Source of the DNA: Ochrobactrum sp. CGA5
GTDB lineage: Bacteria > Pseudomonadota > Alphaproteobacteria > Rhizobiales > Rhizobiaceae
Length of the DNA: 64,000 bases
Direction: 5' to 3'
Assembly: GCF_006345815.1 (NCBI RefSeq)
Contig: NZ_VCIG01000004.1
Coordinates: 62,001-126,000, forward strand
Shown here: positions 7,837-60,857 of the stretch, in pieces
How the letters are laid out: each line of letters starts with the position of its first letter
How positions within the stretch are numbered: the stretch's first letter is position 1
Translations under genes and position numbers: made by a program
Notes under the pieces: generated by a model
Databases searched by the model: none
Told to the model about the DNA's origin: nothing
What the model saw: the letters and a program-made list of their open reading frames with translations, nothing else

Positions 7837-8067
7837 ATGTCCTCCCAGATAGCATATATGCCGCCTTCCGGCGGACCTCCCCAAAGTCCCGCTCCTCTAG
7901 CGGGAATGAACTACATGGAGATTAGCGAAAACAAAATCAATAGGCCAGATCATGCGACTATAGTTTGGCCGCAATTTCATCTTTGGGCTTTCGAATCGCT
8001 CGAAATTGCAGGCCTAAGCAGAGCGTAAGACGCTTGACGGTGGCGCTGCGCGGACGTAATAGTGTAA

Positions 8068-38366: not shown

Positions 38367-38447
38367 GACCTGTGCGCCAACGGCCTTTTGCCTGACGAAG
38401 GCAGAATTGGTCCAATCCAGAAGAACTACGGAAATGGACGGTAGAAC

Positions 38448-39353
38448 ATGGATTTGAATTTCAGTGTCGGTGGATGGGCGGATGTTGTGGTCAATTACAT
38501 CCTCGACCACTTTACGCCAGCGCTCGATACGATCGCAGCAGTCATCGGTTTTGTAACTGACGGTATTCAAAACGCTCTTCTCGCGGTGTCGCCGATAGGT
38601 GGGGTCGCAATTCTTACCTTGCTGGCACTTTGGCGCGTAGGGTGGAAGTTCGCGATATTTACGGCTCTTGCACTGGGCCTCATCATCCACATGGGTTTGT
38701 GGACCGGTACGATGGAAAGTCTTTCCCTGGTGCTTGCGTCAACGGTTATTGCTGTTGTGATCGGCATTCCGCTCGGCATCGCCATGGCACGTAGCGACAC
38801 GGTGGCTTCGATCGTGCGCCCGGTGCTCGATCTTATGCAGACGATGCCTGCGTTTGTCTATCTCATTCCGGCAGCGATGTTTTTTGGCCTCGGCGCCGTA
38901 CCTGGAACGATTGCGACGGTGATTTTCGCCATGCCTCCTGTCGTGCGTCTGACCAACCTCGGTATTCGTCAGGTTCACGCGGAGTTTGTGGAAGCAGGGC
39001 TCGCCTTCGGGTGTACGTCGCGACAGCTCTTGTTCAAGGTGCAGCTTCCAAACGCAATGCCCTCGATCATGGCCGGTATCAACCAGACGATCATGCTGTC
39101 GCTGTCAATGGTGGTCATCGCGTCAATGATCGGTGCGGGCGGCCTTGGCAATACGGTTTTGACCGGTATCCAGCGCCTCAATGTGGGGCTCGGTTTTGAA
39201 GGTGGCCTTGCAGTGGTCATTCTGGCGGTCATTCTCGACCGAATCACCCAGAGCTTCGGCAAGGGAGGAGCCGGGTTTTTCAAAAGGCTCGCGTCTTTAA
39301 GAAAGGCGGCGGATACCCAATCCGCCTCTTCCTTTCGTAAGCAGGAAGCGTGA
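38448..39353 (+). CDS. proW: Glycine betaine/proline ABC transporter permease ProW
   Basis: A 301-residue permease with a 60-residue hydrophilic N-terminal part including the ALLAVSPIGGVA segment and six to seven helices. The core LVLASTVIAVVIGIPLGIAMA and the coupling loop VEAGLAFGCTSRQLLFKVQLP are ProW/OpuAB hallmarks. It follows proV by 81 bases. Confidence 0.94.
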   Translation: MDLNFSVGGWADVVVNYILDHFTPALDTIAAVIGFVTDGIQNALLAVSPIGGVAILTLLALWRVGWKFAIFTALALGLIIHMGLWTGTMESLSLVLASTVIAVVIGIPLGIAMARSDTVASIVRPVLDLMQTMPAFVYLIPAAMFFGLGAVPGTIATVIFAMPPVVRLTNLGIRQVHAEFVEAGLAFGCTSRQLLFKVQLPNAMPSIMAGINQTIMLSLSMVVIASMIGAGGLGNTVLTGIQRLNVGLGFEGGLAVVILAVILDRITQSFGKGGAGFFKRLASLRKAADTQSASSFRKQEA

Positions 39354-39413
39354 AGCGAGCAAAAATAATCAAGAATAACAACGGGAACTGATACCAATCG
39401 AAAAGGAGAAGCT

Positions 39414-40280
39414 ATGTTAGGCAAACTAACCAAATTCGGTCTGGCGGCAGTTGTGGCGGGAACGATGACCATGGGCGCAGCATTTGCGCAGGACGGCAAG
39501 CCGGTGAAAATCGGCTGGGCACCTTGGTCGGATGCCGAATTCGTCACCAAACTTGCCAAGAAGCTGATCGAAGACAATCTCGGTCAGAAGGTGGAGCTGG
39601 TTCAGACGGATGTGGCCCCGCTTTATCAGGGTGTAAGCCGTGGTGATATCGATGCCATGATGATGGCCTGGTTGCCGGAAACGCACGCAGACTACTATGC
39701 TCGCGTAAAGGACAAGGTCGAAGACCTCGGCCCGCTCTATGAAGGTGCGAAACTCGGCTGGATTGTTCCTGCTTACATCCCGGAAAGCGAGATCAGTTCT
39801 ATTGAAGATCTGAAAAAGCCGGAAGTCCGCGAAAAGCTCAAGGGCGAAATTCAAGGCATCGATCCGGGCGCTGGCCTCACACGTCTGTCGCAGGAAGCAA
39901 TCAAGGAATACGGGCTAGACTACAAGCTCAATATTTCGAGCGAAGCAGCGATGCTGACAACAGTAGACCGCGCCACCCGTTCCGACGGCTGGTTCGTGGC
40001 AACCTCGTGGAGTCCGCACTGGATGTTCGGCAAATACAAGCTGCGGTACATTGCCGATCCTAAAGGCGCTCTGGGCGGTGCGGAACACATTGATGCCATT
40101 GCACGCAAGGGTTTCAAGGAAGACAATCCGAAGGTTGCTTCGCTGCTGACCAAGATGAGCATTCCCATCAGCGAGCTTGAAGCTGCGATGTTTGATGCGC
40201 AGGAAACATCCTATGAGAAAGCCGTCGATAAATATATCGCGGACCATCCAGACCGCATCAAGGAATGGCTGGCTGAGTAA
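39414..40280 (+). CDS. proX: Glycine betaine-binding periplasmic protein ProX-like
   Basis: A 288-residue OpuAC-type receptor with AAGGAG before the start and signal peptide 1-25 (AFA-QD). Aromatic residues that form the betaine cage are visible in IGWAPWSDAEF, AMMMAWLPETHADYY and FVATSWSPHWMF. In this family the Trp boxes bind the trimethylammonium group. It is the third gene of proVWX and is followed immediately by a terminator. Confidence 0.94.
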   Translation: MLGKLTKFGLAAVVAGTMTMGAAFAQDGKPVKIGWAPWSDAEFVTKLAKKLIEDNLGQKVELVQTDVAPLYQGVSRGDIDAMMMAWLPETHADYYARVKDKVEDLGPLYEGAKLGWIVPAYIPESEISSIEDLKKPEVREKLKGEIQGIDPGAGLTRLSQEAIKEYGLDYKLNISSEAAMLTTVDRATRSDGWFVATSWSPHWMFGKYKLRYIADPKGALGGAEHIDAIARKGFKEDNPKVASLLTKMSIPISELEAAMFDAQETSYEKAVDKYIADHPDRIKEWLAE

Positions 40281-41551: not shown

Positions 41552-42007
41552 TTAGCGGTAGTAGGGTGAATAGCACTGTTTGCGGGGCCCATTGTATGGC
41601 TGGAATGTGTTGTCTGAGGACCGATAGGACCGGTAGCGATTATAGCACCACTGGACATGTGCATTCGACATTCTCGGAGCCCGATAGACAGGACGAGGCT
41701 GGCTTATAGCTCCACCAATTATCGCACCTGCACCGAACGCTGCGAGTGGATACCACCATCCATCACTGTGGCGGCGATAGCCGTGACGATAATGCCGGTA
41801 GCCGCGATGTCCGTTCCAATGTCCTGGCCGATTGTGCCTATTGCCATGATAGTGACGAGGCGGGCGGCGATGGTCACGCACTTGCTCGACATTCTGGTTG
41901 ACGACAGGGCGTTCCAGATTCATCGGTGCAGCCATTGTCGGAGTGATGGACGTTGCTCCAAAGATTACGGCGAACGCTCCGACCCAAGTCTGTTTGAAGA
42001 TATTCAC
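41552..42007 (-). CDS. BA14K family secreted protein
   Basis: A 151-residue exported protein. Signal peptide 1-26 ends TMA-AP. The middle (about 44-82) is a His/Arg/Gly/Tyr-rich segment, then a hydrophobic Gly/Ala stretch ([13 protein letters not shown]), and residues about 117-150 carry the BA14K signature [19 protein letters not shown] and [11 protein letters not shown]. Brucella BA14K is a 14-kDa immunoreactive protein with lectin-like activity, anchored at the cell surface. It is a single-gene unit with its own terminator. Confidence 0.85.
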
Positions 42008-42120
42008 GTGCGACTCTCCATTTTAGATGGTCAAAACAAACGCTTGAAATATCGATTTGTTCCCACGCATCTCCGGGCATTAAGACTGTCTACACCGAGT
42101 TTTGGTGGAGACGATGCGCA

Positions 42121-42195
42121 AAAGGAAAGGGAGCAGGCTCCTCCCCAAGAACCTGCTCCCTAATGCATCGCCCCCCGCCATAGGTGGTGCGATGC
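42121..42195 (-). terminator. Terminator hairpins downstream of the iron alcohol dehydrogenase operon
   Basis: GGGAGCAGG (42129-42137) pairs with CCTGCTCCC (42152-42160) and, read on the minus strand, is followed by TTTCCTTTT. A second stem, GCATCGC/GCGATGC (42165-42195), lies before it. Together they separate the operon from the BA14K promoter. Confidence 0.75.
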
Positions 42196-42231
42196 TTATT
42201 ATTTGCCTTTGACAGGGCCGAATTCAGAGTT

Positions 42232-43404
42232 TCAGACCTTACCTTCGAGTGCGGCGTTTAGCAACTTCAACGCGCGTTCTTTTGTCAGTTCAATCGGGTT
42301 GCCGCCAGCCGTCGGATCAACGATAGCCATTTCGGCGATGAGGTCCTTCCGGGCGTCGTCCATTTCGAGGCCTTTGATAAATTCCGGCAGCGTATTGGGG
42401 ACACCTAGATCACTCCGCAGCTTCATAACAGCAGCCAGAAATCCATCAAAGCCGCCCTTGATGCCGAGATAGTCAGCCAGCCTTTCGATGCGCTTTTCGA
42501 TAGCCGATCGGTTCTGAAGCAGGACATAAGGCATGAAAACTGCATTCGTCATGCCATGATGGGTATCATAGAGGGCGCCGATAGGGTGCGAGAGTGAATG
42601 GATTGCGCCAAGACCTTTCTGAAAAGCCGTTGCCCCCATGGCGGCGGCGGCCATCATGTTTGCACGCGCTTCAATATTCTTGCCATCGGCATAAGCCTTT
42701 GGCAGATTCTCAAAAACCAGACGGATACCTTCCACCGCGATGCCATCAGCCATCGGATGAAACCCCGGAGCACAATAGGCCTCAAGGCAGTGTGCCAGCG
42801 CATCCATGCCTGTACCTACGGTGATGAAGGGGGGCATTCCGGTAGAAAGCTCAGGATCGGCAATGACAGTTACCGGCAGCATCTTCGGGTGAAAGATGAC
42901 TTTCTTGGTGTGGGTTGCTTCGTTGGTTAAAACGCCCGCGCGACCAACCTCCGATCCGGTGCCGGCAGTAGTGGGTACGGCAATGATTGGCGCAATCGCT
43001 TTGCTGTCAGCGCGAGTCCACCAATCGCCAATGTCTTCAAAATCCCAGACCGGTCGCGTCTGCCCCGCCTGAAAGGCTATCAGTTTGCCAAGATCCAGTG
43101 CCGAACCACCGCCAAAGGCAATGACGCCATCATGCTTGCCGCTTTTGAAGACTTCAACGCCCGCATAGAGATTGCTTTCGACTGGGTTGGGTTTGACGTC
43201 GGAGAAAACCCCATGTTTCAGGTCGGTTTCATCGAGAATAGCGAGGGTGGACGCCACGACCGGAAGTTTCGCCAAGCCGGGATCGGTTACAAAGAGTGGG
43301 TTCTGAATGCCTGCGGCCTTGAGGACGGCAGGCAATTCCTTGATACGGCCTGGGCCAAAAAGCACTGTGGTGGGGAAATTCCATTTGGCTGTCAAAGTAG
43401 TCAT
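42232..43404 (-). CDS. Iron-containing alcohol dehydrogenase
   Basis: A 390-residue group III dehydrogenase. NAD-binding FGGGSALDLGK (about 97-107), TAGTGSEVGRAGV (about 146-158) and the metal ligands in GTGMDALAHCLEAY and HSLSHPIGALYDTHHG are intact. Family members oxidise primary alcohols, 1,2-propanediol, gamma-hydroxybutyrate or amino alcohols. It is the last gene of the glutamine-synthetase-like operon, next to an aldehyde dehydrogenase, which suggests an alcohol to aldehyde to acid sequence on one substrate. Confidence 0.9.
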   Translation of the reverse strand: MTTLTAKWNFPTTVLFGPGRIKELPAVLKAAGIQNPLFVTDPGLAKLPVVASTLAILDETDLKHGVFSDVKPNPVESNLYAGVEVFKSGKHDGVIAFGGGSALDLGKLIAFQAGQTRPVWDFEDIGDWWTRADSKAIAPIIAVPTTAGTGSEVGRAGVLTNEATHTKKVIFHPKMLPVTVIADPELSTGMPPFITVGTGMDALAHCLEAYCAPGFHPMADGIAVEGIRLVFENLPKAYADGKNIEARANMMAAAAMGATAFQKGLGAIHSLSHPIGALYDTHHGMTNAVFMPYVLLQNRSAIEKRIERLADYLGIKGGFDGFLAAVMKLRSDLGVPNTLPEFIKGLEMDDARKDLIAEMAIVDPTAGGNPIELTKERALKLLNAALEGKV

Positions 43405-43434
43405 GTCGATTGCTTTCCAGAAACTGAATTCAGA

Positions 43435-44820
43435 TCAGATTTTCTCGCGCAGATGGAACGATTTCGGGCGCGTGAGATTGCCGTAGCCGATGGGTGAAAG
43501 GGCAGCGCCTTTGCCCGTGTCTTTTACGCCTGTCCAGACAAGTGCGGGATCGAGATAATCGCAGCGATTCATGAAAACGGTGCCCGTTTCGATGCGGTCC
43601 CCGAGATCAGACGCGTGGTCCGTATCTGCCGTCCAGAGCGAAGCCGTCAGGCCGTAGATACTGTCGTTCATCAGGGCGAGGGCTTCCTCATCGTTGCGCA
43701 CTTTCATGATACCAACGATGGGGCCGAAGCTCTCTTCACGCATGACGCTCATTTGGTGGTCGACATTGGTGAGCACTTCCGGCGCAATGTAGGGAGAACC
43801 TGCGTGATCGTTCTCGACGCTCATATTGACGTGAGCCTTCGCGCCTTTGCGCAAGGCTTCCGCCTTCTGTTCGCGGATGAGATCGGCAAAGCGCGCCTGC
43901 GCCATTGGTCCGAGCGTCGTTGAACTATCCAGCGGATTGCCGACCACATACTGCTTCGTCAGGTCGATGAACCCGTCGACGAAGCGGTCATAAACAGATT
44001 CGTGGACATAGATACGCTCAATGCCGCAGCAGCACTGGCCGGAGTTGAAGAAGGCACCATCGACCAGATTGGCGACGGCATGATCCAGATTGACATCCGG
44101 CAAAACATAGGCCGGGTCTTTGCCACCCAGCTCCAACCCTAGAGTCATGAAGGTGCCTGCGGCAGCCTTTTCGATGGCGCGACCGCCGCCAACCGAGCCG
44201 GTGAAATTCACATGATCGATCGCGCCGGACGCAAGCAGCTTCTCTGTCGATGCATGATCCAGGACGATGTTCTGGAAGACCCCCTTGGGCAGCCCGGCCA
44301 TCTCAAACGCTTTTGCAAAGCGTTCGCCTGCCAGAAGCGTCTGTGTTGCATGTTTGAGGATTACAGAGTTTCCGGCCATGAGGGCCGGGATGATCGTGTT
44401 GACAGCCGTGAGATATGGATAGTTCCACGGCGCAATCACCAGAACAACGCCAAGCGGTAAGTGCTTCACATACCGGCGGAAGCCATCTTTTTGCGCTGGC
44501 ACATAGGGTTTCAGCGCTTCTTCGGCGATGTCGATCATATATTGACCGCGTTCCTGAACACCACCATTTTCGCCGCCGTAGCGCGTTGGACGTCCCATCT
44601 GCCATGCGAGTTCAGGGACAATCTCTTCCTGCATCCCGGCAAGAGCATCCAATGCGGCTTGGCAATAGCGTGCGCGCTCGGTGATGTTCAACTGAGCCCA
44701 GCCTGATTGCGCATCGCGTGCGGCAGCCACCGCTGAGGCGACTGCAGCTTCGCTTAAAAAAGGACGCTCGGCATAAACCGAGCCGTCTATCGGAGAGATG
44801 ATTTTGGCCGTGCCGCTCAT
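43435..44820 (-). CDS. Aldehyde dehydrogenase family protein
   Basis: A 461-residue NAD(P)-dependent aldehyde dehydrogenase. The substrate-channel VIAPWNYPYLTAVNTIIPAL (about 132-151), general base in LGLELGGKDP (Glu near 230) and nucleophile region FFNSGQCCCGIERIYV (Cys near 262-264) are present. The three consecutive Cys residues are unusual but occur in the family. PuuC, which oxidises gamma-glutamyl-aminobutyraldehyde, is a functional analogue suggested by the adjacent ligase. It lies 58 bases after the ligase gene. Confidence 0.9.
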   Translation of the reverse strand: MSGTAKIISPIDGSVYAERPFLSEAAVASAVAAARDAQSGWAQLNITERARYCQAALDALAGMQEEIVPELAWQMGRPTRYGGENGGVQERGQYMIDIAEEALKPYVPAQKDGFRRYVKHLPLGVVLVIAPWNYPYLTAVNTIIPALMAGNSVILKHATQTLLAGERFAKAFEMAGLPKGVFQNIVLDHASTEKLLASGAIDHVNFTGSVGGGRAIEKAAAGTFMTLGLELGGKDPAYVLPDVNLDHAVANLVDGAFFNSGQCCCGIERIYVHESVYDRFVDGFIDLTKQYVVGNPLDSSTTLGPMAQARFADLIREQKAEALRKGAKAHVNMSVENDHAGSPYIAPEVLTNVDHQMSVMREESFGPIVGIMKVRNDEEALALMNDSIYGLTASLWTADTDHASDLGDRIETGTVFMNRCDYLDPALVWTGVKDTGKGAALSPIGYGNLTRPKSFHLREKI

Positions 44821-44878
44821 CTGCGATTTCCTCTGAAGTCTGGCATTGCGTTATTCATTTCGGGATCGGTCACGCGGG

Positions 44879-46249
44879 TCAATAGCGCTCGAACCCGCGA
44901 TGCAGTTCCCAGTCGGTTACACGCCGGTCATATTCGATCTGTTCCCAATGGGCGGTGTGGACGTAGTGGTTGACGACAGCTTCCCCGAAAGCCTCTTTGA
45001 GGAACGCGGAGTTTTTGAGCGCCTGTGCTGCCTCGCGCAACGTATAGGGGATCTCCTTGAGCTTCACCGCACTATAGGCATCGCCGACGAACGGTTCATC
45101 AAGTTCCAACTGTTCATCTATTCCCCGCAGACCCGATGCGATCAGCGCTGCAAAAGCCAGATATGGATTAAGGTCGGCGCCTCCGATGCGGCATTCGATG
45201 CGAATACCTTTCGTGCCTTCCCCGCAAAGTCGAAATCCGGCTGTGCGATTATCCTGGCTCCACATGATCTTTGTCGGAGCAAACGTGCCGGCCTGAAAGC
45301 GCTTGTAGGAATTGATATAGGGTGCCAGGAAATAGGTGTAGTCAGTGGCGTATTTGAGCTGTCCGGCCACCCATGAACGCATGAGGGGCGTCATGGTATA
45401 GGGCGCTTTCGGATCGAAGAAGAGCGGCTCCTTACCGTCGGCGCTCCAGATGGAATTGTGCACGTGGCTTGAGCTTCCAGCCTTGCTGTAATCATATTTG
45501 GCCATGAAGGTGATGCATTTGCCGTGTGCCTCGGCAATTTCCTTCATTGCGTTCTTCATGATGACATGGCGGTCTGCCATTTCAAGCGCCTCGGCGTAAC
45601 GCACATTCAGCTCTTCCTGCCCCGGACCCCATTCGCCCTTGGAGTTTTCGACCGGGATGCCGGCTGCTGCAAGCTGGTTGCGCATTGCGCGTAGAACTGG
45701 CTCCTCCTTGGTGGTCAGGTGGATGACATAGTCCTGCACGTAAGGTGAGGCCGTTTCCATACCCTGCCAGTGCTTGGCACGGGCCGTCTTGTAAGTCTCG
45801 TCGAACAGATAGAATTCAAGCTCGGACGCAAAGTACGCGCGATAGCCGCGCTCGTGCAGGCGCGCAAGCTGCTTCTTAAGAATAGCACGCGGGGAATGCG
45901 CCAGATCCTGATGGTGGTGGTGGTCGAGCACGTCGCAAAGCACGATGGCGGTCTTTTCCAGCCATGTGGCGACACGCAAGGTCGAAAGGTCCGGCTTGAT
46001 GACAAAATCACCATACCCCTTGTCCCATCCGGCAGCTTCGTAGCCCGGCACGGGCTCCATATCGATATCGTCGGCAAGAAGATAGTTGCAGCCGTGGGTC
46101 TCGTCGTAACCAGATTCCACGAAGAACGGTCCGTAGAAGCGCTTGCCGATCAGGCGACCTTGCATGTCGACAAAACATGCGAGAACCGTGTCGATTTCGT
46201 CCTCCGCTACTGCCCTTTTCAATGCGTCGAATGTCAGTTGTCCGGCCAT
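44879..46249 (-). CDS. Glutamine-synthetase-like gamma-glutamyl ligase (PuuA/GlnT type)
   Basis: A 456-residue member of the glutamine synthetase superfamily. Catalytic features include ASELEFYLF (metal-binding Glu), GPGQEELNVRYAEAL, the ATP-binding SSSHVHNSIW and the Arg-rich QDNRTAGFRLCGEGTKGIRIECR, quoted in part. It lacks the adenylylation-loop Tyr context of GlnA and ends in the TDWELHRGFERY tail of GS-like catabolic ligases. These add glutamate to an amine, for example putrescine, ethanolamine or isopropylamine. TRAP uptake genes precede it and two oxidising enzymes follow, so it likely protects an imported amine before oxidation. Confidence 0.87.
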   Translation of the reverse strand: MAGQLTFDALKRAVAEDEIDTVLACFVDMQGRLIGKRFYGPFFVESGYDETHGCNYLLADDIDMEPVPGYEAAGWDKGYGDFVIKPDLSTLRVATWLEKTAIVLCDVLDHHHHQDLAHSPRAILKKQLARLHERGYRAYFASELEFYLFDETYKTARAKHWQGMETASPYVQDYVIHLTTKEEPVLRAMRNQLAAAGIPVENSKGEWGPGQEELNVRYAEALEMADRHVIMKNAMKEIAEAHGKCITFMAKYDYSKAGSSSHVHNSIWSADGKEPLFFDPKAPYTMTPLMRSWVAGQLKYATDYTYFLAPYINSYKRFQAGTFAPTKIMWSQDNRTAGFRLCGEGTKGIRIECRIGGADLNPYLAFAALIASGLRGIDEQLELDEPFVGDAYSAVKLKEIPYTLREAAQALKNSAFLKEAFGEAVVNHYVHTAHWEQIEYDRRVTDWELHRGFERY

Positions 46250-46315
46250 TTAATTTGCTGTGCTCCCTCGGAATGAAATGAGAGGCGCCGCGCGAATGCA
46301 CGGCGCCTTCGTTCG

Positions 46316-47383
46316 TCAGGTGTAACGGTACGGTGCGCCTGCATCGCGCATGGTCTTCTGGTATTTCTTGAGTATTTCCACCACCTTCGCGTTTCGGGCG
46401 CTCTTGGCGGCAATCTCATCCCAGAACTGTTCGGCGGCGTCCTCAATCTGCTTCCATTCCGCTTCCGGAATAGTCGTCAGTTCCAACTTCCCGCCGTTGG
46501 TGCGATAGTGAGCTTCACCCCACCAGTACCAGTGCTGGCGGTAGTAATGCGATGAATCCATCGCCAGCTTGAACAGGGTCTTCAAGTGATCCGGCACGGC
46601 TTCCCATTTTTCGGTATTTGCGAAATAGGACCCTGCCCAAGCACCGTTGATGTTGTTGGTCAGATAGTACTTGTTGATGTCCGCCCAGCCGACCGTATAG
46701 GCTTCGGTAGCACCGCACCATGCAACGCCATCGAGCTCGCCGGTCTGGATTGCAACTTCAATATCCTCCCATGGCAGCGTGACCGGCACGACGCCGAATT
46801 TGGTCAGGAAACGCCCGCCAGTCGGGAAGGTGAAGACGCGAAGTCCCTGCAGGTCAGCGACACTGCGGATCGGTTTGGTGGTCACGAAATTGCAAGGGTC
46901 CCAGGAACCGGCGCTCAGCCAAGTAACGCCCGGAATTTCCTTATACGCTTCTTCCCAGATCTCATTGAGCCCATACCAGTTGAACAGGGCCGGGACATCA
47001 AGGCTGTAGCGTGAAGCGAAGGGGAAATAAGCCCCAAAGACGGCTACGTCGACTGGCGAAGCCATGGAGTCGTCGTCGCTTTGCGCGGCGTCGATTGTGC
47101 CGGACTGAACCGCGCGGAAAAGCTCGCCCTGTGGCACGAGCTGGTCGGAAGTATAGAGTTCGATCACCATGTCGCCATTGGCAGCTTTGTTGAAAGCGTC
47201 GATAGACGGTTTGATGACATGCTCTGCAAGTGCAGGGCCCGCATAGGTTTGGAGCCGCCACTTGATCGGGCTCTGCGCCCTGACGTAAGGCGTCGCAAGT
47301 GTGCTTGCGCCCAGTGCGCCAACGGTTGTAAGCCCGGCTTTTTTGAGAAAATCGCGTTTGTTAAGCTTGCTATTCTCACTCAT
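46316..47383 (-). CDS. TRAP transporter receptor, DctP/TakP type
   Basis: A 355-residue receptor. ATG 47383 is preferred to one two codons upstream, since GGGAG then sits seven bases away. The N-terminus KRDFLKKAGLTTVGALGAS resembles a Tat-type signal but has KR in place of RR, so the export route is uncertain. The mature part begins SPIKWRLQTYAGPALAEHV and includes SVADLQGLRVFTFPTGG. TakP-like members bind 2-oxo acids or other carboxylates, often as dimers. It is the third transport gene of the operon, after the two permeases. Confidence 0.88.
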   Translation of the reverse strand: MSENSKLNKRDFLKKAGLTTVGALGASTLATPYVRAQSPIKWRLQTYAGPALAEHVIKPSIDAFNKAANGDMVIELYTSDQLVPQGELFRAVQSGTIDAAQSDDDSMASPVDVAVFGAYFPFASRYSLDVPALFNWYGLNEIWEEAYKEIPGVTWLSAGSWDPCNFVTTKPIRSVADLQGLRVFTFPTGGRFLTKFGVVPVTLPWEDIEVAIQTGELDGVAWCGATEAYTVGWADINKYYLTNNINGAWAGSYFANTEKWEAVPDHLKTLFKLAMDSSHYYRQHWYWWGEAHYRTNGGKLELTTIPEAEWKQIEDAAEQFWDEIAAKSARNAKVVEILKKYQKTMRDAGAPYRYT

Positions 47384-47484
47384 GCCCATTCTCCCACTCT
47401 TGTTTGAGTTCACCCTTTATTTGTTCCGGTCTGGCCCTTCGGGCTTCTTGTCACCGGCTTCTGCGTATTCTCCCGTAACTATCG

Positions 47485-48810
47485 TCATCGCCCGGTATAC
47501 CAGTTGGGCAACCACATCGCGATCTGTGGAAAGATCATGAGGATAATGATGGTCAACACCATCAGAAACAGGAACGGAATGATTGAATGATAGATGTCTA
47601 TCAGCGTTACTTCTTTCGGAGCCAAGGCCCGCATCATGAACAAATTGTACCCGAACGGCGGCGTGATGTATGCGATCTGGCAAGTGATTGTGTAGAGCAC
47701 GCCAAACCAGATGGCATTGAAACCGAGGCTCTTGACCAATGGTATGTAGAGCGGCGCCACGATGACCAGCATTGCCGTGTCATCAAGGAACATGCCCAAT
47801 ATGATGAACGAGAACAGCATCAGTATCAGGATTGTCCATGGCGATAGATCGAAGGTGTTCAGTAACACGTTTTCAATGGCTTTCACCGCGCCGAGGCCGT
47901 CATAGACCGACGAAAAGCAGAGCGCTGCCAGAATGATCCAAAGGAACATGCAGGTAACGGTGAGACTGTTCCGTGTTGTGGTTTCCCAGACAGTTTTGTT
48001 GAGACGTCCGGTGAACAGTGCGGCAAGTGTCGCGAGTAGGGCGCCGACGGCTGAGCTTTCGATGAGGCTGGTTACGCCCGTGAGGAACAGGCCCATCATT
48101 GCGCCGAAGACCACCAGCGGAAGAATGCCGGCGCGTAGTGCGACGAAACGGTCGCGCCATGTGATCCTGTCCAACTCTTCCTGTGGTAAAGCCGGTCCGA
48201 GCTCAGGCCGGATGCGGCAGCGTATATAGATGTAGATTGCAAAGAGTGCGGCCATGAGCAGGCCGGGGCCTATGCCGGCGAGCCAGAGCTGCAAAACTGG
48301 TTGCCGTGCAATCATCGCGTAGAGGACGAGCACGACGCTGGGCGGAATGAGGATGCCGAGCGAGCTGCCAGCCTGAATAACGCCTGTCACCATGACCTTG
48401 CTGTAACCGCGTTTCAGCAATTCGGGCAGTGCGACGGTAGCGCCGATTGCCATGCCTGCGACGCTTAGACCATTCATGCAGGAAATGATGACCATCAAGC
48501 CAATCGTACCCAGCGCCAAACCGCCGCGAATCCCGCCAAACCACACGTGAAACATGCGATAGAGATTGCTGGCGATGCCCGATTCCGAGAGCATGTAACC
48601 CATGAAGACAAAGAACGGTACTGTGATAAGCGGATACCAGTTCAACACTGCAAAGGTGGCATTGTAAGGCAGCTCGAACGAGCCTTTGCCCCAGAGCAGG
48701 AGTGCGGCGAGCGAGCCGACAAAGCCGATCACGCCGAATACACGCTGCCCGGTCATGAGTAGCACCATCATGGTGGCAAACATGAAGAGCGTTATGAATT
48801 CTGAGCTCAT
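47485..48810 (-). CDS. TRAP transporter large permease
   Basis: A 441-residue DctM-family permease with twelve helices. FFVFMGYMLSESGIASNLYRM, GLSVAGMAIGATVALPELL and AGSSLGILIPPSVVLVLYAM are the usual conserved loops and are all present (quoted in parts of up to 20). Its start overlaps the small permease stop by four bases, and about 100 bases separate it from the receptor gene. Confidence 0.92.
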   Translation of the reverse strand: MSSEFITLFMFATMMVLLMTGQRVFGVIGFVGSLAALLLWGKGSFELPYNATFAVLNWYPLITVPFFVFMGYMLSESGIASNLYRMFHVWFGGIRGGLALGTIGLMVIISCMNGLSVAGMAIGATVALPELLKRGYSKVMVTGVIQAGSSLGILIPPSVVLVLYAMIARQPVLQLWLAGIGPGLLMAALFAIYIYIRCRIRPELGPALPQEELDRITWRDRFVALRAGILPLVVFGAMMGLFLTGVTSLIESSAVGALLATLAALFTGRLNKTVWETTTRNSLTVTCMFLWIILAALCFSSVYDGLGAVKAIENVLLNTFDLSPWTILILMLFSFIILGMFLDDTAMLVIVAPLYIPLVKSLGFNAIWFGVLYTITCQIAYITPPFGYNLFMMRALAPKEVTLIDIYHSIIPFLFLMVLTIIILMIFPQIAMWLPNWYTGR

Positions 48811-49358
48811 ATGTGATGCCCCTCCTCAATGGCAGGACCCGCGATGGTACTGATCGGCTTTCCACGCAGGGAGGCCCAGTCCTTGAAGAAATTGGAGACG
48901 CATTGGAGGAGCAGCAGAAATATCCCAACCGTCATGATGAGCTTGATCGGCCAGAGAAGTGGCGCCCAAGAGGTATAGTTCTTCTGATTGTAAACGATAG
49001 CGTAGTTGGTCGAGGATATGCCGCCGGCGACCATCACACCGAGATAGAAGATGATGAACAGGATTGTGATCATGTCGGTGATCATTTTCCGGCGCGGTGA
49101 AAGACGGTCGAAGAAGAGGTCCATTCGCACATGGGCACCTTGCTGCATGGCATAGGCACCGCCCAGCAGATAATAGGCTGAGAGCAGAAACTGGGACATT
49201 TCCAGGACCCAGTTGACCGGCACGCCGAAGATAACACGTGAAAGAGTCGAATAAAGAAGGCAGGCGCCGAGCACGAAGATGAGGTACATCGCAAAGCGCC
49301 CGACATGGTAATTCACTGCATCAACAGATTTAACGAACAGTCTGATCAGCTTCGGCAT
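48807..49358 (-). CDS. TRAP transporter small permease
   Basis: A 183-residue DctQ-family protein with four helices. The segment WVLEMSQFLLSAYYLLGGAY (about 50-69) and GAHVRMDLFFDRLSPR are characteristic. It is slightly longer than usual (typically 160-175) because of a C-terminal tail. It follows the amidohydrolase gene by 11 bases. Confidence 0.9.
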   Translation of the reverse strand: MPKLIRLFVKSVDAVNYHVGRFAMYLIFVLGACLLYSTLSRVIFGVPVNWVLEMSQFLLSAYYLLGGAYAMQQGAHVRMDLFFDRLSPRRKMITDMITILFIIFYLGVMVAGGISSTNYAIVYNQKNYTSWAPLLWPIKLIMTVGIFLLLLQCVSNFFKDWASLRGKPISTIAGPAIEEGHHI

Positions 49359-49369
49359 TTCCGGCTCCT

Positions 49370-50164
49370 TCAGGCTTTCTGTTCAGAGTTGTGAGAACCA
49401 ATTGCTGTCGCAATCTCCTTCAATATCGTGGCGAGCTTTTCGGCCCATTCAGTTTGGGTCCGAGCATCGGTAATCTCATTATTGCGAAGTTCGATCATCG
49501 CACAGGGCGCATTGCGCGGGCGGGCGTGTCGCTCCAGCGTGTAGTAGACGCGGTCGGCAGGTGAATAAGGTTCGTTGACGCCGACGTTGAGGTTGGGATC
49601 TTTCCGCAGCGCGGCGATTAGCGGTGCACCAATCCGCTCATCTTCATCGTGGATGATCCCGATCTGCCAAGGGCGCCAGATGTCGCGGTAGACGGGGGTA
49701 AAGGAATGGATCGTCACCACCCACGAGGGCAGTCCGCGTCGCGCACGATCTGCGATTACGTTTTCGACAGCCGTATGGAACGGACGATGCGAAAGATCGA
49801 TACGCGCCAGACGTTCCATTGGGTTGAGAGCTTGGTTTCCGGGGACCACGGTTGTCTCGCTGATTTCCGGAATGAGGTCGTGAGCGTCGAGCGGACGATT
49901 GCAATCGATCAACAGTCGTGAAAGCTGGCTTTCGACAAGGGGCGCGTCGAGAGACGTGGCGAGATGTCTTGCGACTTCCACTGCACCGGGGTCCCAGGCA
50001 ATATGGGCTCGCAAGGCATCGGCATTCAGCCCGAGTCCTTCAAACGTCTCGGGAATGAAATTGGATGCATGTTCACAGACAAACAGATAGGGACTCCCCC
50101 CATCCTTGTTGAAGACAGAAACAGGCTCACACGAAACCGTGCGATATTCTCGCTCGTCCGTCAT
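49370..50164 (-). CDS. N-formylglutamate amidohydrolase family protein
   Basis: A 264-residue zinc hydrolase of the FGase/HutG2 family. Marks are VCEHASNFIPETFEGLGL (about 29-46), HIAWDPGAVEVA, SRLLIDCNRPL (about 83-93), TIHSFTPVYR and a late EPYSPADRVYYTLERHA. HutG2 removes formate from N-formylglutamate in histidine breakdown, but no hut gene is here. In this operon with a gamma-glutamyl ligase it may hydrolyse a gamma-glutamyl amide or release an acyl group instead. It is the first gene of the operon and faces the RpiR regulator. Confidence 0.87.
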   Translation of the reverse strand: MTDEREYRTVSCEPVSVFNKDGGSPYLFVCEHASNFIPETFEGLGLNADALRAHIAWDPGAVEVARHLATSLDAPLVESQLSRLLIDCNRPLDAHDLIPEISETTVVPGNQALNPMERLARIDLSHRPFHTAVENVIADRARRGLPSWVVTIHSFTPVYRDIWRPWQIGIIHDEDERIGAPLIAALRKDPNLNVGVNEPYSPADRVYYTLERHARPRNAPCAMIELRNNEITDARTQTEWAEKLATILKEIATAIGSHNSEQKA

Positions 50165-50183
50165 TCCGTTGGTTCCCCGCGCT

Positions 50184-50197
50184 GTAACTTATGTTAC
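50184..50197. promoter_or_regulatory. Candidate operator in the divergent amidohydrolase/RpiR promoter region
   Basis: GTAAC-TTAT-GTTAC is a perfect 5-bp inverted repeat with a four-base centre, 20 bases upstream of the amidohydrolase start in an A/T-rich region. It is a possible site for the RpiR regulator at 50306. Arm length is short. Confidence 0.35.
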
Positions 50198-50305
50198 GTT
50201 TTTTCCAATTATGCGCTATTGCGAATTATTTGATACATCCTATGATTATTTGTCAAACACAATTTCGCCCAAACTCAAAAAGGGCCTGCGGAAACAGAAA
50301 GTGTC

Positions 50306-51136
50306 GTGCCGGTGCATGCAAGCGTTGCAGAACTGATCAATGAGCGGATCGATACGATGCCAGCGGGCGAGCGAAGTGCCGCACAGACGCTGATCGCCAA
50401 CTATCCGATGCTGGGCCTGAAAACCGTCGCGGAGTTTTCCGGCTTGGCTGGCGTCAGTTCCCCGACAATACTGCGCTTTGTTAACCGGCTCGGGTTCCAG
50501 AGCTATCCTGATTTTCAAGCCCGCTTGCAGGATGAACTGGCGGCTCAATTACAGTCACCGCACCATCGCAACAAACAGCCGGGAACCGGGCAAGATACCG
50601 CCTATCCGGCGGTGGAACATACACTGGAGAATATACGCGAGAGTTTCCGGCATTTGGGTGCAAAGCAGTTGCGGCAGGCCGTGTCCACTCTAAGTGATGC
50701 GAAAGGAAATATCTATCTGATTGGTGGACGCTTCACCGACCCCATCGCACAGTACATGGCCGCGCATATGACTGTCATTCGCCCGCATGTTTTTCATCTG
50801 GGCGGGCAAGAGAGCGTGTGGCGTGACCGTCTTCTCGATATGGGAAAGCGTGATGTTCTCGTGGTTTTCGATATTCGCCGTTATCAGGATAGTCTCTTGA
50901 AACTGACTGAGAAGGCACGGGCCCGAGGGGTTGAGGTGATCCTAATTACCGACCAGTGGCTTTCGCCGATTGCGCGGGTGGCCCGGCATGTTCTAGCGGG
51001 GCGGACAGCCGTACCATCAGCTTGGGATTCGTCAGCAGCGCTCTTTGTGTTGGCGGAAACGGTCATTCGCGAAATGACGAGAATGCTAGAAAAAGGCAGC
51101 GCCGCCCGCATTGCGGAACTTGAAGGGCTACGCTGA
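50306..51136 (+). CDS. MurR/RpiR family transcriptional regulator
   Basis: A 276-residue regulator starting at GTG 50306. The HTH_6 domain has FSGLAGVSSPTILRFVNRLGF (about 52-72, recognition helix). The C-terminal SIS-like domain (about 115-250) contains GNIYLIGGRFTDPIAQYMA and VLVVFDIRRYQDS, in which the sugar-phosphate loop is less canonical than in the paralogue at 34194 (RRYQ replaces the usual SG). It is divergent from the TRAP/ligase operon and most likely controls it; its effector may not be a sugar phosphate. Confidence 0.87.
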   Translation: MPVHASVAELINERIDTMPAGERSAAQTLIANYPMLGLKTVAEFSGLAGVSSPTILRFVNRLGFQSYPDFQARLQDELAAQLQSPHHRNKQPGTGQDTAYPAVEHTLENIRESFRHLGAKQLRQAVSTLSDAKGNIYLIGGRFTDPIAQYMAAHMTVIRPHVFHLGGQESVWRDRLLDMGKRDVLVVFDIRRYQDSLLKLTEKARARGVEVILITDQWLSPIARVARHVLAGRTAVPSAWDSSAALFVLAETVIREMTRMLEKGSAARIAELEGLR

Positions 51137-51155
51137 AAGGTTTTCGGTACGCGCT

Positions 51156-51809
51156 TTATTCCAGTCCGCAAGCTCGCAAGAATAGTGCCGAGACTTCCTT
51201 CTCGATCCGTTCAAGGTCAAGCGGTTCGTCCTCGCCGAGTTCCATCATGTTGCGGACCTGCGCTTCAAAGTCGGCGTAGTGCTGGGTAACGGCCCATATA
51301 TGCATCTGAAACAGTAGCGGATCGACCGGCTTGATGCGACCGTCGTCCACCCATGACTGGATAAGCTTCACCGCATTATGGGTCGCAGATACATGTTTCT
51401 TCCAATGGCGGCTCAGATATGGTGCGCCATTGGCAATTTCAGTGGTGAAAAGGCGTGAAGCCTTCGGATTTTTCTGGCTGTATTCGAGCTTGGCGCGGAT
51501 ATATTGACGGATCACCTTTGCGGGATCATCCTCGGTGCTGGCTCCGAGGAATATGTCTTCCCAGTCTTCGAGGATATAAACAATTATATCCTCGTAAAGC
51601 TCTTCCTTGCTCGAAATATAGTAGTGCAGTTGAGGTTTGGTGAGGCCGGCGCGATGCGCAATGCCCTGCGTGGACGCCCCCGCAAGACCTTTCTCGGCAA
51701 ACTCGTCAATCGCAGCAGCTCGTATTGCGCCAAGAATGCGCCGCCTACGTCCGAGAACCTTGTCCCGTCCGGTCAGTTCGGTGTAGCCATTCTCGTCGCC
51801 GTTGCTCAT
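51156..51809 (-). CDS. TetR family regulator, RutR-like
   Basis: A 217-residue regulator. The N-terminal HTH (about 25-70) contains GIAHRAGLTKPQLHYYISSKEELY (quoted within two helices). The C-terminal part (KNPKASRLFTTEIANGAPYL, IKPVDPLLFQMHIWAVTQHYADF) matches the RutR/YcdC ligand domain, which binds uracil or thymine in E. coli. It is the last gene of the creatininase-ABC operon. The perfect palindrome TGACCGATCGGTCA at 58019 resembles RutR sites (TGACC-GGTCA halves) and is its likely target, so it probably senses a ring compound of the pathway. Confidence 0.85.
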   Translation of the reverse strand: MSNGDENGYTELTGRDKVLGRRRRILGAIRAAAIDEFAEKGLAGASTQGIAHRAGLTKPQLHYYISSKEELYEDIIVYILEDWEDIFLGASTEDDPAKVIRQYIRAKLEYSQKNPKASRLFTTEIANGAPYLSRHWKKHVSATHNAVKLIQSWVDDGRIKPVDPLLFQMHIWAVTQHYADFEAQVRNMMELGEDEPLDLERIEKEVSALFLRACGLE

Positions 51810-51836
51810 CCATACCTGCCGCGATTGAGGAGGGGT

Positions 51837-52847
51837 TTATTGGCCCAACTTCTTCTTGATGTCGAGCCCCACGCCCTTGTTTACGAAGGCATTGGTCGCG
51901 ACCTTGCTCATGTCGAGCTCCTCCTCGCTGACAATTCCTGCCTTGCGGGCGAGTTCGTAGAACGCCTTGACCCGATCCATTGAGATTGCGCCAATGCCCT
52001 TTTCAAGCGTGTCGCCACTGTCGATGAGCTGAAGGCTCTTGATGCGCTCCAGTTCCGCATCCAGCGTTTCCTTGCTCATGTCCGGATTGTCTTTCAGAAT
52101 AAGTTCATATGCTTTGCTACGGTCGCCATAGAGGAAGTTTGTCCAGCCTTCGATAGAAGCGCTGACGAAGCGTTGTACAAGATCAGGGTTCTTTTCTATG
52201 AGATCCTGACGGGTTTCGATCGTGTTGCCGTAAGTGCTGTAGCCGTAGTCTGCGAGAAGATAGGTCGTAACCTTCGCGCCTTCCTTTTCAGCGTAGATCG
52301 GTTCGGCGGTCGCATAGGCCTGTTGCACGACTTTCTTGTCGTTGAGGAACTGGGCAAGGCTATAGCCATAGGGACGTAACTGTTCGTCCTTGAAACCAAA
52401 GTCCTTGACGAGCCATGGCCAGAACGAGAACTGACCATCTTTCGAGATCAGGATCGTTTCGGCATTGGCCAGATCCTTGAAGTCCTTGTATGCCCCTTCA
52501 TGCGCCATCAACGCCTGCGGATCCTTCTGGTAGAAGGCGGCAACTACCGTCGTCGGCACGCCGTTGGCGACATTATTGAACGATAGAAGCAGGTTGCCTG
52601 TCAGCAGGAAGTCGAGACGGCCCGCAGCAAGCATCGGCCGATTGTTGACCTGCGGTCCGCCCATTTCAATTTGCACGTCGAGGCCGTGCTTCTCATAGGT
52701 GCCGTCGGCCACAGCCTGATAAAACCCCCCGTGACCGGCTTGCGCCAGCCAGTTGGTGCCGAGCGTCACTTTGTCGAGCGCATAAGCCATTTGTGCGGAA
52801 AGGCCCATGGAAAGTGCAGCCAACGCTGCAACCAGTGTCTTTTTCAT
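51837..52847 (-). CDS. NMT1/THI5-type ABC transporter receptor
   Basis: A 336-residue periplasmic receptor with signal peptide 1-23 (AYA-LD). The NMT1 features are TLGTNWLAQAGHGGFYQAVA (about 28-47), VQIEMGGPQVNNRPMLAAG and VDRVKAFYELARKAG near the end (seen as MDRVKAFYEL). Such receptors bind thiamine pyrimidines, sulfonates, riboflavin and similar small ring compounds. It belongs with the ATPase and permease at 55434-57096 although two enzyme genes separate them. Confidence 0.88.
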   Translation of the reverse strand: MKKTLVAALAALSMGLSAQMAYALDKVTLGTNWLAQAGHGGFYQAVADGTYEKHGLDVQIEMGGPQVNNRPMLAAGRLDFLLTGNLLLSFNNVANGVPTTVVAAFYQKDPQALMAHEGAYKDFKDLANAETILISKDGQFSFWPWLVKDFGFKDEQLRPYGYSLAQFLNDKKVVQQAYATAEPIYAEKEGAKVTTYLLADYGYSTYGNTIETRQDLIEKNPDLVQRFVSASIEGWTNFLYGDRSKAYELILKDNPDMSKETLDAELERIKSLQLIDSGDTLEKGIGAISMDRVKAFYELARKAGIVSEEELDMSKVATNAFVNKGVGLDIKKKLGQ

Positions 52848-52862
52848 ATTGGTTCCCCTTAC

Positions 52863-54242
52863 TTAATCATTCAAAGCCATGTCGGCAGTCCAGCCGCGCG
52901 TTTTGCCCGGATTGAGCAGGCCATATGGGTCGGCCAGCTTCTTGAAGTCGATCTGGACATCGTCGATTTCCTTCATGCCACCATCCTCGATGGTGTAGGC
53001 ATGGGGATCGTAAATGTCGCAACCGTCAACCTTCTCCAACTCCTTGATCAGGCGGTACATCTCGTCACGGCCTTCAAAGCGGACAAGCGGAAGCGCAAAA
53101 ATCTGCACTTCGCCTTCAAGGCGGGCCATTTCGTGATGCATATATTGCTTTTCGCCGTAGCGCTCGATCTGGCGTGTCACCACATCGACATCGAAAGGAC
53201 GCGGATAGGCGACCTGAAGATAGGTCCAGCCTTCCTCTGCTTTCAGCGCCTGCAAGGTTGTGTGGTTCCAACCGCATTCATAAGCGGGCTGCAGTCCGTT
53301 TTTATGCAGTTCATCCAGTGTCATGGCGAAGGAAACCTCGCCGGAAAATTCGTTGGCGAGCGCTTCGAAACGAGCCATTTCTTCCGGTGCGATCATGGCA
53401 AAAACCGCATCCTTGTCGGATGGGAACAGATCCCCGAACTTCGTGTAAAAGCGTGCAAAACGGCGATCAACCGTGGTTAGAAGATAGCAATCAAGATTGT
53501 CTTCCAGGGCCCTGAGACAGAAGTTGAGCGTTGCCTCGTAACTATCGAACAACGCTGCAGTATGTATCCAGTCAGTTGCCTTGGTGAGGCCGATCTCCAA
53601 TTCCAGAATAATGCCGTTGGTGCCATAGGCATGCTGGACTTTATGAATGTCACGTCCGGTCAATTCAATAATCTTCGGTTCCGGTTCGACAGTCAAAACC
53701 TTGACCGAATAGACATTGCCATCATCACGCAGCATGCCATGACGCAGCGAGCCGATGCCGCCTGAACCGCCTGAGAAAAAGCCGCCAATTGTGGCGATGC
53801 GGCGGGTCGAAGGATACATCAACAGTTCCTGACCTGTCTCGCGTACGGCATCGTCAAGGCGCGAAATGCGAGCACCGGCTTCAACGCGAACCTTGCCGGT
53901 TTCGATAGAAACGATACGGTCGATCTTGGTCATGTCCAGAATGATGCCGCCCTCGAGCGGAACGCACTGACCGTAATTGCCTGTGCCACCGCCACGAACG
54001 GTGATAGGAATACGCAATTTTGCGGCGGCCGCCGCTACACGACGAACTTCATCCTGATCTTTCGGGATGACGACGAGGTCGCCGACATAATGGCCGATAT
54101 CTTCGGTGAGGATCGGGCTGTACCAGAAATAATCGCGTGAACGCAGTTCGACTTGCTTCGGGTCGTCATAGATGCGGATTCCATCGATTTCGGCGCGGAA
54201 TGCGGCCCAGTCGTAAATGCGCTGCGAAGCGGCAGAATTCAT
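52863..54242 (-). CDS. FAD-linked oxidase (PCMH/GlcD-like)
   Basis: A 459-residue flavoprotein. ATG 54242 is used because GGGAGA precedes it; the frame extends 53 codons further without support. The PCMH FAD domain (about 50-230) has VRGGGTGNYGQCVPLEGG and GGFFSGGSGGIGSLRHG. The C-terminal part is variable. Relatives oxidise alpha-hydroxy acids, alditols or lactones. Its start overlaps the deaminase-like gene's stop by four bases. In this cluster it may oxidise a hydroxy acid released from ring opening. Confidence 0.85.
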   Translation of the reverse strand: MNSAASQRIYDWAAFRAEIDGIRIYDDPKQVELRSRDYFWYSPILTEDIGHYVGDLVVIPKDQDEVRRVAAAAAKLRIPITVRGGGTGNYGQCVPLEGGIILDMTKIDRIVSIETGKVRVEAGARISRLDDAVRETGQELLMYPSTRRIATIGGFFSGGSGGIGSLRHGMLRDDGNVYSVKVLTVEPEPKIIELTGRDIHKVQHAYGTNGIILELEIGLTKATDWIHTAALFDSYEATLNFCLRALEDNLDCYLLTTVDRRFARFYTKFGDLFPSDKDAVFAMIAPEEMARFEALANEFSGEVSFAMTLDELHKNGLQPAYECGWNHTTLQALKAEEGWTYLQVAYPRPFDVDVVTRQIERYGEKQYMHHEMARLEGEVQIFALPLVRFEGRDEMYRLIKELEKVDGCDIYDPHAYTIEDGGMKEIDDVQIDFKKLADPYGLLNPGKTRGWTADMALND

Positions 54243-55462
54243 GTGGTTCTCCCGTTGATTGGGCCCGTTGAGTTGGGTTGGGCAATGCCATTGCGCCAGA
54301 CGGTGCGGCGGGACTGCGGACGACTGATGAGATCGTTCAGGTCTACTGCGTCGTGCCAGACAAAACTGGCCGCGCCACCTGCCTGTGGCTGCTGCAAGCA
54401 TTTGTTGCCAATAAGGCGGGCGGGCAGAGTGGTGATACTGTCGAGCCAGTCCTGCGGTTCTAAATGGCAGACCGGTGCTGCGAGACGAAGAACAGCGAGC
54501 GGGTCATAATCACCATAAGGGTAAAATGCATCGCGGACATTGTCTGAACCGAGCATGACATCCATTCCCGCCTCGCGCGCCTCTTTAAGCGGCGCAACAC
54601 CGCGTAAGCGCGGAGACTTTCCGCCGATCCTATCTTGCAGATAGAGATTTGTGGTGGGCAGCGAAACGAGTGCCGTGCCTGCATCTGCGGCAGCGCCAAG
54701 GATACGCTGCAGTTCGTCCGGTTCGCGCAGCGACAGCGAACAGGCATGACCACACAATACGCGACCACTCATGCTATGGCGTTTGGTTGCCGATACGATA
54801 AGCGAAAACCCGTCTGCATCGAAATCCAGACCCTCATCGACATGGAAATCGAGCGTGAGATCATGTCGTACGGCGAGGCGGAACATCTCTTCGATTTTGG
54901 CTTCGAGATCGACGTTGCGATAGAAAAATGCACCGAACACGCCGCCATCTTTCGCGACATGGGCGGCGATTTGCGAGCCCACGTCCAGCACGAGATCGCC
55001 GTGGACAAGTGCCGCCAACTGAAGGTCGATCCGGCCGTTCCATTCCTCGCGCAATTCGTTCAGAACGGGCCACGCAATGGGGATTTCCGGTGTTGTCCAG
55101 TCAACGTGGCTGCGCATTGCGCCGACACCTTGTTCAAACGCAGCCTCAAGACCTTTGCTCGCGCGGGCACGGATATCTTCCGCGCTCCAATTCGTGCGGT
55201 CAGTTGACATCAGGTCTATAGCGTCGAAAAGGCAATTCACTCTGGCGCTGCCATTTTCTGCAATACGCTGGATCGTGAACGTCTTGTCGAGGTGAACATG
55301 GATATCCGCAAAGAGCGGGGTGACAAGGCCGCCACGCACTGATTGTGTCGGCACAAGAGCGGCAATGCGATCACCTTCGATCTGGATGTCGTAATGTCCG
55401 GAAAGTCCGGCTATGGCGACGCCAGTCAGCATGTTAGCGCTCACGACGGATTTCGCTTTCAT
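54239..55462 (-). CDS. Cytosine-deaminase-like amidohydrolase
   Basis: A 407-residue metal-dependent hydrolase related to CodA. Metal ligands are in FADIHVHLDKTF (His-x-His), DFHVDEGLD, CGHACSL and GSDNVRDAFYPYGDYDPL (Asp). The start at ATG 55462 keeps the N-terminal beta strand VVSANMLTG; an ATG at 55432, directly after the permease stop, is an alternative. Family members deaminate cytosine, isocytosine or triazines or open cyclic ureides. With creatininase and RutR-like genes nearby, a pyrimidine- or imidazole-like ring is a fair guess. Confidence 0.85.
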   Translation of the reverse strand: MKAKSVVSANMLTGVAIAGLSGHYDIQIEGDRIAALVPTQSVRGGLVTPLFADIHVHLDKTFTIQRIAENGSARVNCLFDAIDLMSTDRTNWSAEDIRARASKGLEAAFEQGVGAMRSHVDWTTPEIPIAWPVLNELREEWNGRIDLQLAALVHGDLVLDVGSQIAAHVAKDGGVFGAFFYRNVDLEAKIEEMFRLAVRHDLTLDFHVDEGLDFDADGFSLIVSATKRHSMSGRVLCGHACSLSLREPDELQRILGAAADAGTALVSLPTTNLYLQDRIGGKSPRLRGVAPLKEAREAGMDVMLGSDNVRDAFYPYGDYDPLAVLRLAAPVCHLEPQDWLDSITTLPARLIGNKCLQQPQAGGAASFVWHDAVDLNDLISRPQSRRTVWRNGIAQPNSTGPINGRTT

Positions 55463-56282: not shown

Positions 56283-56286
56283 GTCC

Positions 56287-57096: not shown

Positions 57097-57100
57097 TTCC

Positions 57101-60808: not shown

Positions 60809-60857
60809 ACGAAGCAGCCGCATTTTGCGGAGGTACACGTGCGACTCTGGAGTTGTT

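What the first reader, a model, noticed from the sequence alone, without database searches (positions are those of the whole stretch)
42232..51136. Possible gamma-glutamyl-protected amine or amino-alcohol degradation module
Seen: one minus-strand operon of N-formylglutamate-amidohydrolase-like protein, TRAP transporter, GS-like ligase, aldehyde dehydrogenase and iron alcohol dehydrogenase, with a divergent RpiR regulator. Known: GS-like ligases (PuuA, IpuC, GlnA4) protect amines as gamma-glutamyl amides, and dehydrogenases then oxidise the side chain. Inferred: the ligase glutamylates an imported amino alcohol, the two dehydrogenases turn alcohol to acid, and the FGase-like enzyme removes glutamate in place of a PuuD-type hydrolase. 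A hydrolase of this family in that role, and TRAP uptake of such a substrate, would be new to me.
Basis: partly seen in the sequence, partly recalled or inferred. Interest (0 to 1): 0.7.

Follow-up and report, generated by a model that had tools for sequence, protein, structure and literature searches.

The report
Known ethanolamine uptake and breakdown operon

Summary
Window 42232-50164 (minus strand) encodes an iron alcohol dehydrogenase, an aldehyde dehydrogenase, a GS-like ligase, a TRAP transporter and an FGase-family hydrolase, with a divergent RpiR regulator at 50306-51136. The proposed chemistry is supported, but both points called new are in print. Phaeobacter sp. MED193 has the same gene order; five of its operon's proteins rise on phosphorylethanolamine, and its TRAP binding protein EtoX binds ethanolamine, Kd 7.9 uM (PMC10132767). 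A review lists a PF05013 hydrolase as gamma-glutamylglycine amidohydrolase for C. salexigens (PMC9397018). The window's binding protein is 67% identical to Csal_0678, crystallised with ethanolamine (PMC12410723). The genome has its own GlnA and HutG elsewhere and no EutB match. The hydrolase lies beside the ligase in 30 of 43 ligase-anchored loci. Ethanolamine is the likeliest substrate (0.9); the enzyme steps in this organism are inferred. Verdict: an ordinary member of a known pathway, low interest. Two side points seem less familiar: an amino-acid permease in place of TRAP (12 of 43 loci carry one), and three genomes that keep the ligase with no PF05013 match.

The parts
42232..43404 (-). 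iron-containing alcohol dehydrogenase (GETADH-like, gamma-glutamylethanolamide dehydrogenase)
   Evidence: PF00465 and PF25137; position matches MED193_10056; substrate inferred
43435..44820 (-). aldehyde dehydrogenase (GAADDH-like)
   Evidence: PF00171; position matches MED193_10051; substrate inferred
44879..46249 (-). GS-like ligase (ETAGA-like, ethanolamine gamma-glutamylase)
   Evidence: PF00120; 239 bits against a GlnA cut-off of 429; 978 bits to PDB 11zs, 552 to 5dm3
46316..47413 (-). EtoX-type TRAP binding protein (DctP); start codon uncertain (longest frame begins with GTG); signal-peptide-like N-terminus by eye
   Evidence: PF03480; 512 bits to 4uab/4xf5, 214 of 318 aligned residues identical
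47485..48810 (-). EtoW-type TRAP large permease (DctM)
   Evidence: PF06808
48807..49358 (-). EtoV-type TRAP small permease (DctQ)
   Evidence: PF04290
49370..50164 (-). FGase-family hydrolase (GGAH-like, gamma-glutamylglycine amidohydrolase)
   Evidence: PF05013 148.8 bits; 21.4 bits against a HutG cut-off of 278.75; position matches MED193_10026
50184..50256 (-). conserved upstream block: TTGACA-17-TCAAAT (50228-50256) and inverted repeat GTAAC-ATAA-GTTAC (50184-50197)
   Evidence: window plus 15 chosen of 80 loci aligned; window positions; promoter/operator role inferred
50306..51136 (+). divergent RpiR/MurR-family regulator with SIS domain
   Evidence: PF01418, PF01380; RpiR on the strand opposite to the hydrolase in 79 of 80 hydrolase-anchored loci

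Best explanation
This is an ethanolamine utilisation operon of the gamma-glutamyl type. The TRAP transporter (EtoVWX) imports ethanolamine. The GS-like ligase joins it to glutamate with ATP to give gamma-glutamylethanolamide. The iron alcohol dehydrogenase and the aldehyde dehydrogenase oxidise the side chain to gamma-glutamylglycine. The FGase-family hydrolase splits that into glutamate, which is recycled, and glycine. The RpiR protein probably represses the operon until substrate or an intermediate is present. Shown here: gene content, order, relatedness, no EutB match. Shown elsewhere for relatives: ethanolamine binding and a rise of the proteins on phosphorylethanolamine. Inferred: every enzyme step in this organism and the direction of regulation.
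For: Gene order matches MED193_10021-10056, five of whose proteins rise on phosphorylethanolamine and whose EtoX binds ethanolamine at Kd 7.9 uM. Best PDB relative of DctP is 4uab at 512 bits against 67 for the next, 67% identical; 4UAB is Csal_0678 with ethanolamine. Csal_0678 lacks the Arg-147 that TRAP proteins use for carboxylates; the window has Phe where a more distant TRAP protein, 4yzz, has Arg (alignment; that this Arg is the Arg-147 equivalent is my inference). PF00120, PF00465, PF00171 and PF05013 are listed as the C. salexigens pathway set. The genome has a separate GlnA (666.6 bits, cut-off 429.15) and HutG (405.4, cut-off 278.75) and no EutB match.
Against: No enzyme of the operon has been assayed in this organism as far as I saw, and the Phaeobacter paper's legend calls the pathway predicted. 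EtoX of Phaeobacter also rose in the no-phosphate control (2.14), so its rise is not wholly specific. Of 43 ligase-anchored loci 13 lack the hydrolase nearby, and three of those genomes have no PF05013 match. From recall only, 4XF5 (same chain sequence as 4UAB) holds L-alaninol, so the pocket may not be ethanolamine-only. Glu220 of Csal_0678 could not be placed exactly.
Confidence: 0.9

Rival explanations
1. Same chemistry, but the main natural substrate is another small amino alcohol such as L-alaninol or 1-amino-2-propanol.
For: The binding protein family may tolerate close analogues (4XF5 with alaninol, recalled); the ligase also matches IpuC at 38% identity (H38).
Against: Ethanolamine is the reported ligand of Csal_0678 and of EtoX; IpuC is more distant than the ligases of the like-built plasmid loci of Sinorhizobium (66%) and Paracoccus (54%).
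Confidence: 0.07
2. The ligase is an ordinary or spare glutamine synthetase and the neighbours are unrelated.
For: It carries the GS catalytic domain PF00120.
Against: 239 bits against a GlnA cut-off of 429; a true GlnA lies elsewhere at 667 bits; where that GlnA reads FDGSS, which holds ammonium-site residues by recall, the window reads VPGYE; the block recurs across many genera.
Confidence: 0.01
3. The operon belongs to histidine or N-formylglutamate breakdown.
For: PF05013 is named after N-formylglutamate amidohydrolase.
Against: 21.4 bits against a HutG cut-off of 278.75; a HutG at 405 bits is elsewhere in the genome.
Confidence: 0.01
4. Putrescine-type (Puu) pathway for diamines.
For: Same gamma-glutamyl logic; weak match to the gamma-glutamylputrescine synthetase model.
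Against: 187 bits against a cut-off of 650; none of the eight genes is a PuuD-type hydrolase or an amine oxidase, and an alcohol dehydrogenase has no clear use for a diamine.
Confidence: 0.01

Closest known systems
Ethanolamine operon of Phaeobacter sp. MED193, MED193_10021-10056 (PMC10132767; section 9 in full and passages read)
   Same: Same eight genes in the same order by locus tag, RpiR at the same end
   Different: Different host; MED193 sequences were not compared here, and the orientation of its RpiR is in a figure I could not see
Chromohalobacter salexigens ethanolamine pathway with Csal_0678 (Vetting 2015, not held; seen through passages)
   Same: Binding protein 67% identical to 4uab; PF00120, PF00465, PF00171 and PF05013 all present
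   Different: C. salexigens gene order was not examined here; that 5dm3 is Csal_0679 is recalled
Streptomyces coelicolor GlnA4 route (PMC6529630; passages read)
   Same: Gamma-glutamylation of ethanolamine, two oxidations; an FGase-family hydrolase (SCO1615) is proposed in the discussion
   Different: The legend seen lists no TRAP genes, a short-chain dehydrogenase (orf2), and a glutamine amidotransferase (orf5) beside glnA4
Puu putrescine pathway of E. coli (recalled)
   Same: Glutamyl protection of an amine before oxidation
   Different: Substrate is a diamine; PuuD-type hydrolase; amine oxidase in place of alcohol dehydrogenase

Membership tests
EtoVWX gamma-glutamyl ethanolamine operon | Gene content and order RpiR-GGAH-EtoV-EtoW-EtoX-ETAGA-GAADDH-GETADH | tested here: met
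   against the locus tags; the same order with RpiR divergent in Paracoccus denitrificans
EtoVWX gamma-glutamyl ethanolamine operon | Binding protein of the Csal_0678/EtoX group without the carboxylate Arg | tested here: met
   512 bits and 67% identity to 4uab; Phe where 4yzz has Arg (alignment, read by eye)
EtoVWX gamma-glutamyl ethanolamine operon | Platform Glu220 of Csal_0678 | tested here: inconclusive
   Chain numbering may differ from the paper's; four chain Glu near that place (196, 199, 206, 217) are all Glu in the window
EtoVWX gamma-glutamyl ethanolamine operon | Ligase makes gamma-glutamylethanolamide; hydrolase cuts gamma-glutamylglycine | not testable with these tools
   needs enzyme assays
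EtoVWX gamma-glutamyl ethanolamine operon | Induced by ethanolamine | not testable with these tools
   needs expression data
HutG N-formylglutamate deformylase | TIGR02017 above cut-off 278.75 | tested here: not met
   21.4 bits
GlnA glutamine synthetase | TIGR00653 above cut-off 429.15 | tested here: not met
   239.1 bits
Puu pathway | Ligase above the gamma-glutamylputrescine synthetase cut-off 650 | tested here: not met
   186.7 bits
Eut ethanolamine ammonia-lyase route | EutB (PF06751) in the genome | tested here: not met
   0 matches in G000; 1 of 14 controls rings, E. coli

The most novel reading that the evidence does not exclude
The FGase-family hydrolase is a replaceable last step: some lineages keep the ligase and dehydrogenases, and at least one the TRAP transporter, but release glycine with another enzyme. 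G372, a single-contig genome, has the TRAP genes within about 3 kb of the ligase core, on the other strand, and no PF05013 match at E 0.001.
Probability: 0.4. Interest if true: 0.25.

Novelty: already known. Interest (0 to 1): 0.12.

Why it matters
It adds a member of the Brucella/Ochrobactrum group to the likely users of ethanolamine without the Eut ammonia-lyase, and it helps correct the label N-formylglutamate amidohydrolase, which the orthologous genes bear in Paracoccus and Sinorhizobium records. It opens no new question beyond which hydrolase serves the lineages without PF05013.

Tried and rejected
Vetting 2015 and Gerlt 2016 are not held. Three five-term paper searches found 0 papers. 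A search for Ochrobactrum with ethanolamine and gamma-glutamyl listed 3 papers, none on this operon by title or start of abstract (listing only). The sigma-70 scan of 42000-51900 found 6 promoter-like sites against 5.9 expected, and did not list the TTGACA-TCAAAT site; terminator-like sites were 16 against 9.7 expected, not followed up. A palindrome script with arms of 6 or more printed no hits in the RpiR-hydrolase gap.

A local substitute hydrolase was sought in 3 of the 13 hydrolase-less ligase loci: 19 chosen ORFs of L131, L144 and L153 gave no FGase or PuuD-type match; a Peptidase_M90 in L131 was the only hydrolase-like hit. Not every ORF was tested, L133 was only listed, and the other 9 loci were not looked at this way. 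PF07722 (the PuuD-type family) occurs in all 6 genomes searched and in all 14 controls, so its presence says nothing.

Full report
What is there. Eight open frames lie at 42232-51136. On the minus strand, in order of transcription: an FGase-family hydrolase, TRAP DctQ, DctM and DctP, a GS-like ligase, an aldehyde dehydrogenase and an iron alcohol dehydrogenase; a divergent RpiR regulator sits on the plus strand. Gaps within the run are -4 to 71 bases. The window is G000:C35:62001-126000. The hydrolase's nearest named relatives are Brucella (Ochrobactrum) tritici at 88-89% identity (which warns that records very near the window's genome may be left out), so the host is of the Brucella/Ochrobactrum group.

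What it is. Phaeobacter sp. MED193 carries RpiR, GGAH, EtoV, EtoW, EtoX, ETAGA, GAADDH and GETADH in this same order by locus tag (PMC10132767, section 9 read in full; the orientation of its RpiR is in a figure I could not see). Growth on phosphorylethanolamine raised GGAH, EtoX, ETAGA, GAADDH and GETADH, and purified EtoX bound ethanolamine with Kd 7.9 uM. Against a wholly specific response, EtoX also rose without phosphate (2.14). The legend calls the pathway predicted; [quoted passage not shown] salexigens and Agrobacterium tumefaciens C58 (its reference 32, Vetting 2015, which I could not read). A review lists PF00120, PF00465, PF00171 and PF05013 as the C. salexigens set, with PF05013 as gamma-glutamylglycine amidohydrolase (PMC9397018, passages). 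The Streptomyces paper proposes the same last step for SCO1615 in its discussion, although its legend lists a glutamine amidotransferase beside glnA4 (PMC6529630, passages). The same eight genes with RpiR divergent stand on a Paracoccus denitrificans plasmid.

The transporter. The window's DctP matches 4uab at 512 bits, the next PDB sequence at 67, with 214 of 318 aligned residues identical. 4UAB is Csal_0678 with ethanolamine (PMC12410723, passages). Csal_0678 lacks the Arg that other TRAP proteins use to hold carboxylates (PMC4646407, passage); in the alignment the window has Phe where 4yzz has Arg. The platform Glu220 could not be placed exactly because of numbering; the four candidate Glu are all kept.

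The enzymes. The ligase scores 239 bits on the GlnA model (cut-off 429) and 187 on the gamma-glutamylputrescine synthetase model (cut-off 650). One search found GS-family matches at 3 places in the genome, one of them a true GlnA at 667 bits. The genome has 4 FGase-family proteins; one is HutG at 405 bits, while the window's scores 21. The window hydrolase has the motifs CEHAS, DCNR, TIHSF and IELRN; its PDB relative Atu2144, 2odf, has them too, the last as IEIRN. EutB has no match in the genome, while the E. coli control rings.

Census. Presence was scored by tblastn with the window's proteins (and a Sinorhizobium permease) at fixed bit thresholds: hydrolase, RpiR and ligase 100, DctP 200, DctM, both dehydrogenases and permease 300. 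Hydrolase-anchored, the best 80 of 240 loci found: RpiR 79, ligase 76, aldehyde dehydrogenase 72, iron dehydrogenase 70, DctM 66, DctP 65, amino-acid permease 8; the 4 without ligase end at contig ends. Ligase-anchored: 398 genomes drawn evenly from the phylum were searched at E 1e-100 and 43 matched, G000 included. The 42 others gave 43 loci: iron dehydrogenase 41, aldehyde dehydrogenase 37, hydrolase 30, RpiR 29, TRAP DctP and DctM 17 each, amino-acid permease 12. The ligase-anchored set is the fairer test of the hydrolase. The permease in place of TRAP is annotated amino acid permease in Sinorhizobium meliloti and is PF13520. In 11 of the 43 loci it stands with the hydrolase, RpiR and both dehydrogenases.

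Results against a fixed role for the hydrolase. 13 of 43 ligase loci have no hydrolase nearby, also by profile search. In the 13 genomes concerned, 10 have a relative somewhere; for G333 one of its two is in its second operon copy, and the one of G130 holds an internal stop. G372, G054 and G387 have none, and no PF05013 match at all. Five of the 13 loci have the iron dehydrogenase but no aldehyde dehydrogenase above threshold and may serve another substrate. In an Arthrobacter plasmid a ligase 47% identical sits beside a PuuD-type hydrolase.

Regulation. Upstream of the hydrolase, the window and 15 loci chosen of the 80 all share a TTGACA element, and 14 of these 16 sequences hold the inverted repeat GTAACATAAGTTAC exactly (positions). 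All but L069 are from close kin, so conservation is weak evidence. The consensus scan found no excess of promoter-like sites in the region. RpiR binding there is inferred.

Conclusion. No claim is made that the side points (permease in place of TRAP, lineages without PF05013) are absent from the literature; no search was made for them.

Noticed in passing
window 60626-60715 and 60825-61961, +: Glycine riboswitch (59.6 bits) ahead of an aminomethyltransferase gene (PF01571), about 10 kb from the operon; glycine is the expected end product of the operon.
   Followed up: no
window 51156-57901, -: RutR-like TetR regulator, NMT1-type binding protein, FAD-binding protein, amidohydrolase, ABC permease and ATPase, and a creatininase-family protein: a separate, perhaps nitrogen-compound, cluster beside the operon.
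   Followed up: no
window 37071-40280, +: Probable glycine betaine/choline-type ABC transporter (PF04069 binding protein, permease, ATPase) near the ethanolamine operon.
   Followed up: no
window 8054-8287, +: Cobalamin riboswitch, 107.9 bits.
   Followed up: no
L030: Record titled Bacillus subtilis SK6B4 carries the operon at 61-89% identity to this window, much like the Pseudochrobactrum loci; probably mislabelled or contaminated.
   Followed up: no
L141, L151, L153, L159, L160: Ligase relatives beside the iron dehydrogenase without the aldehyde dehydrogenase above threshold; in L153, the only one of the five tested, an FAD-dependent oxidoreductase (DAO) is next to them. Possibly another amine pathway.
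   Followed up: partly
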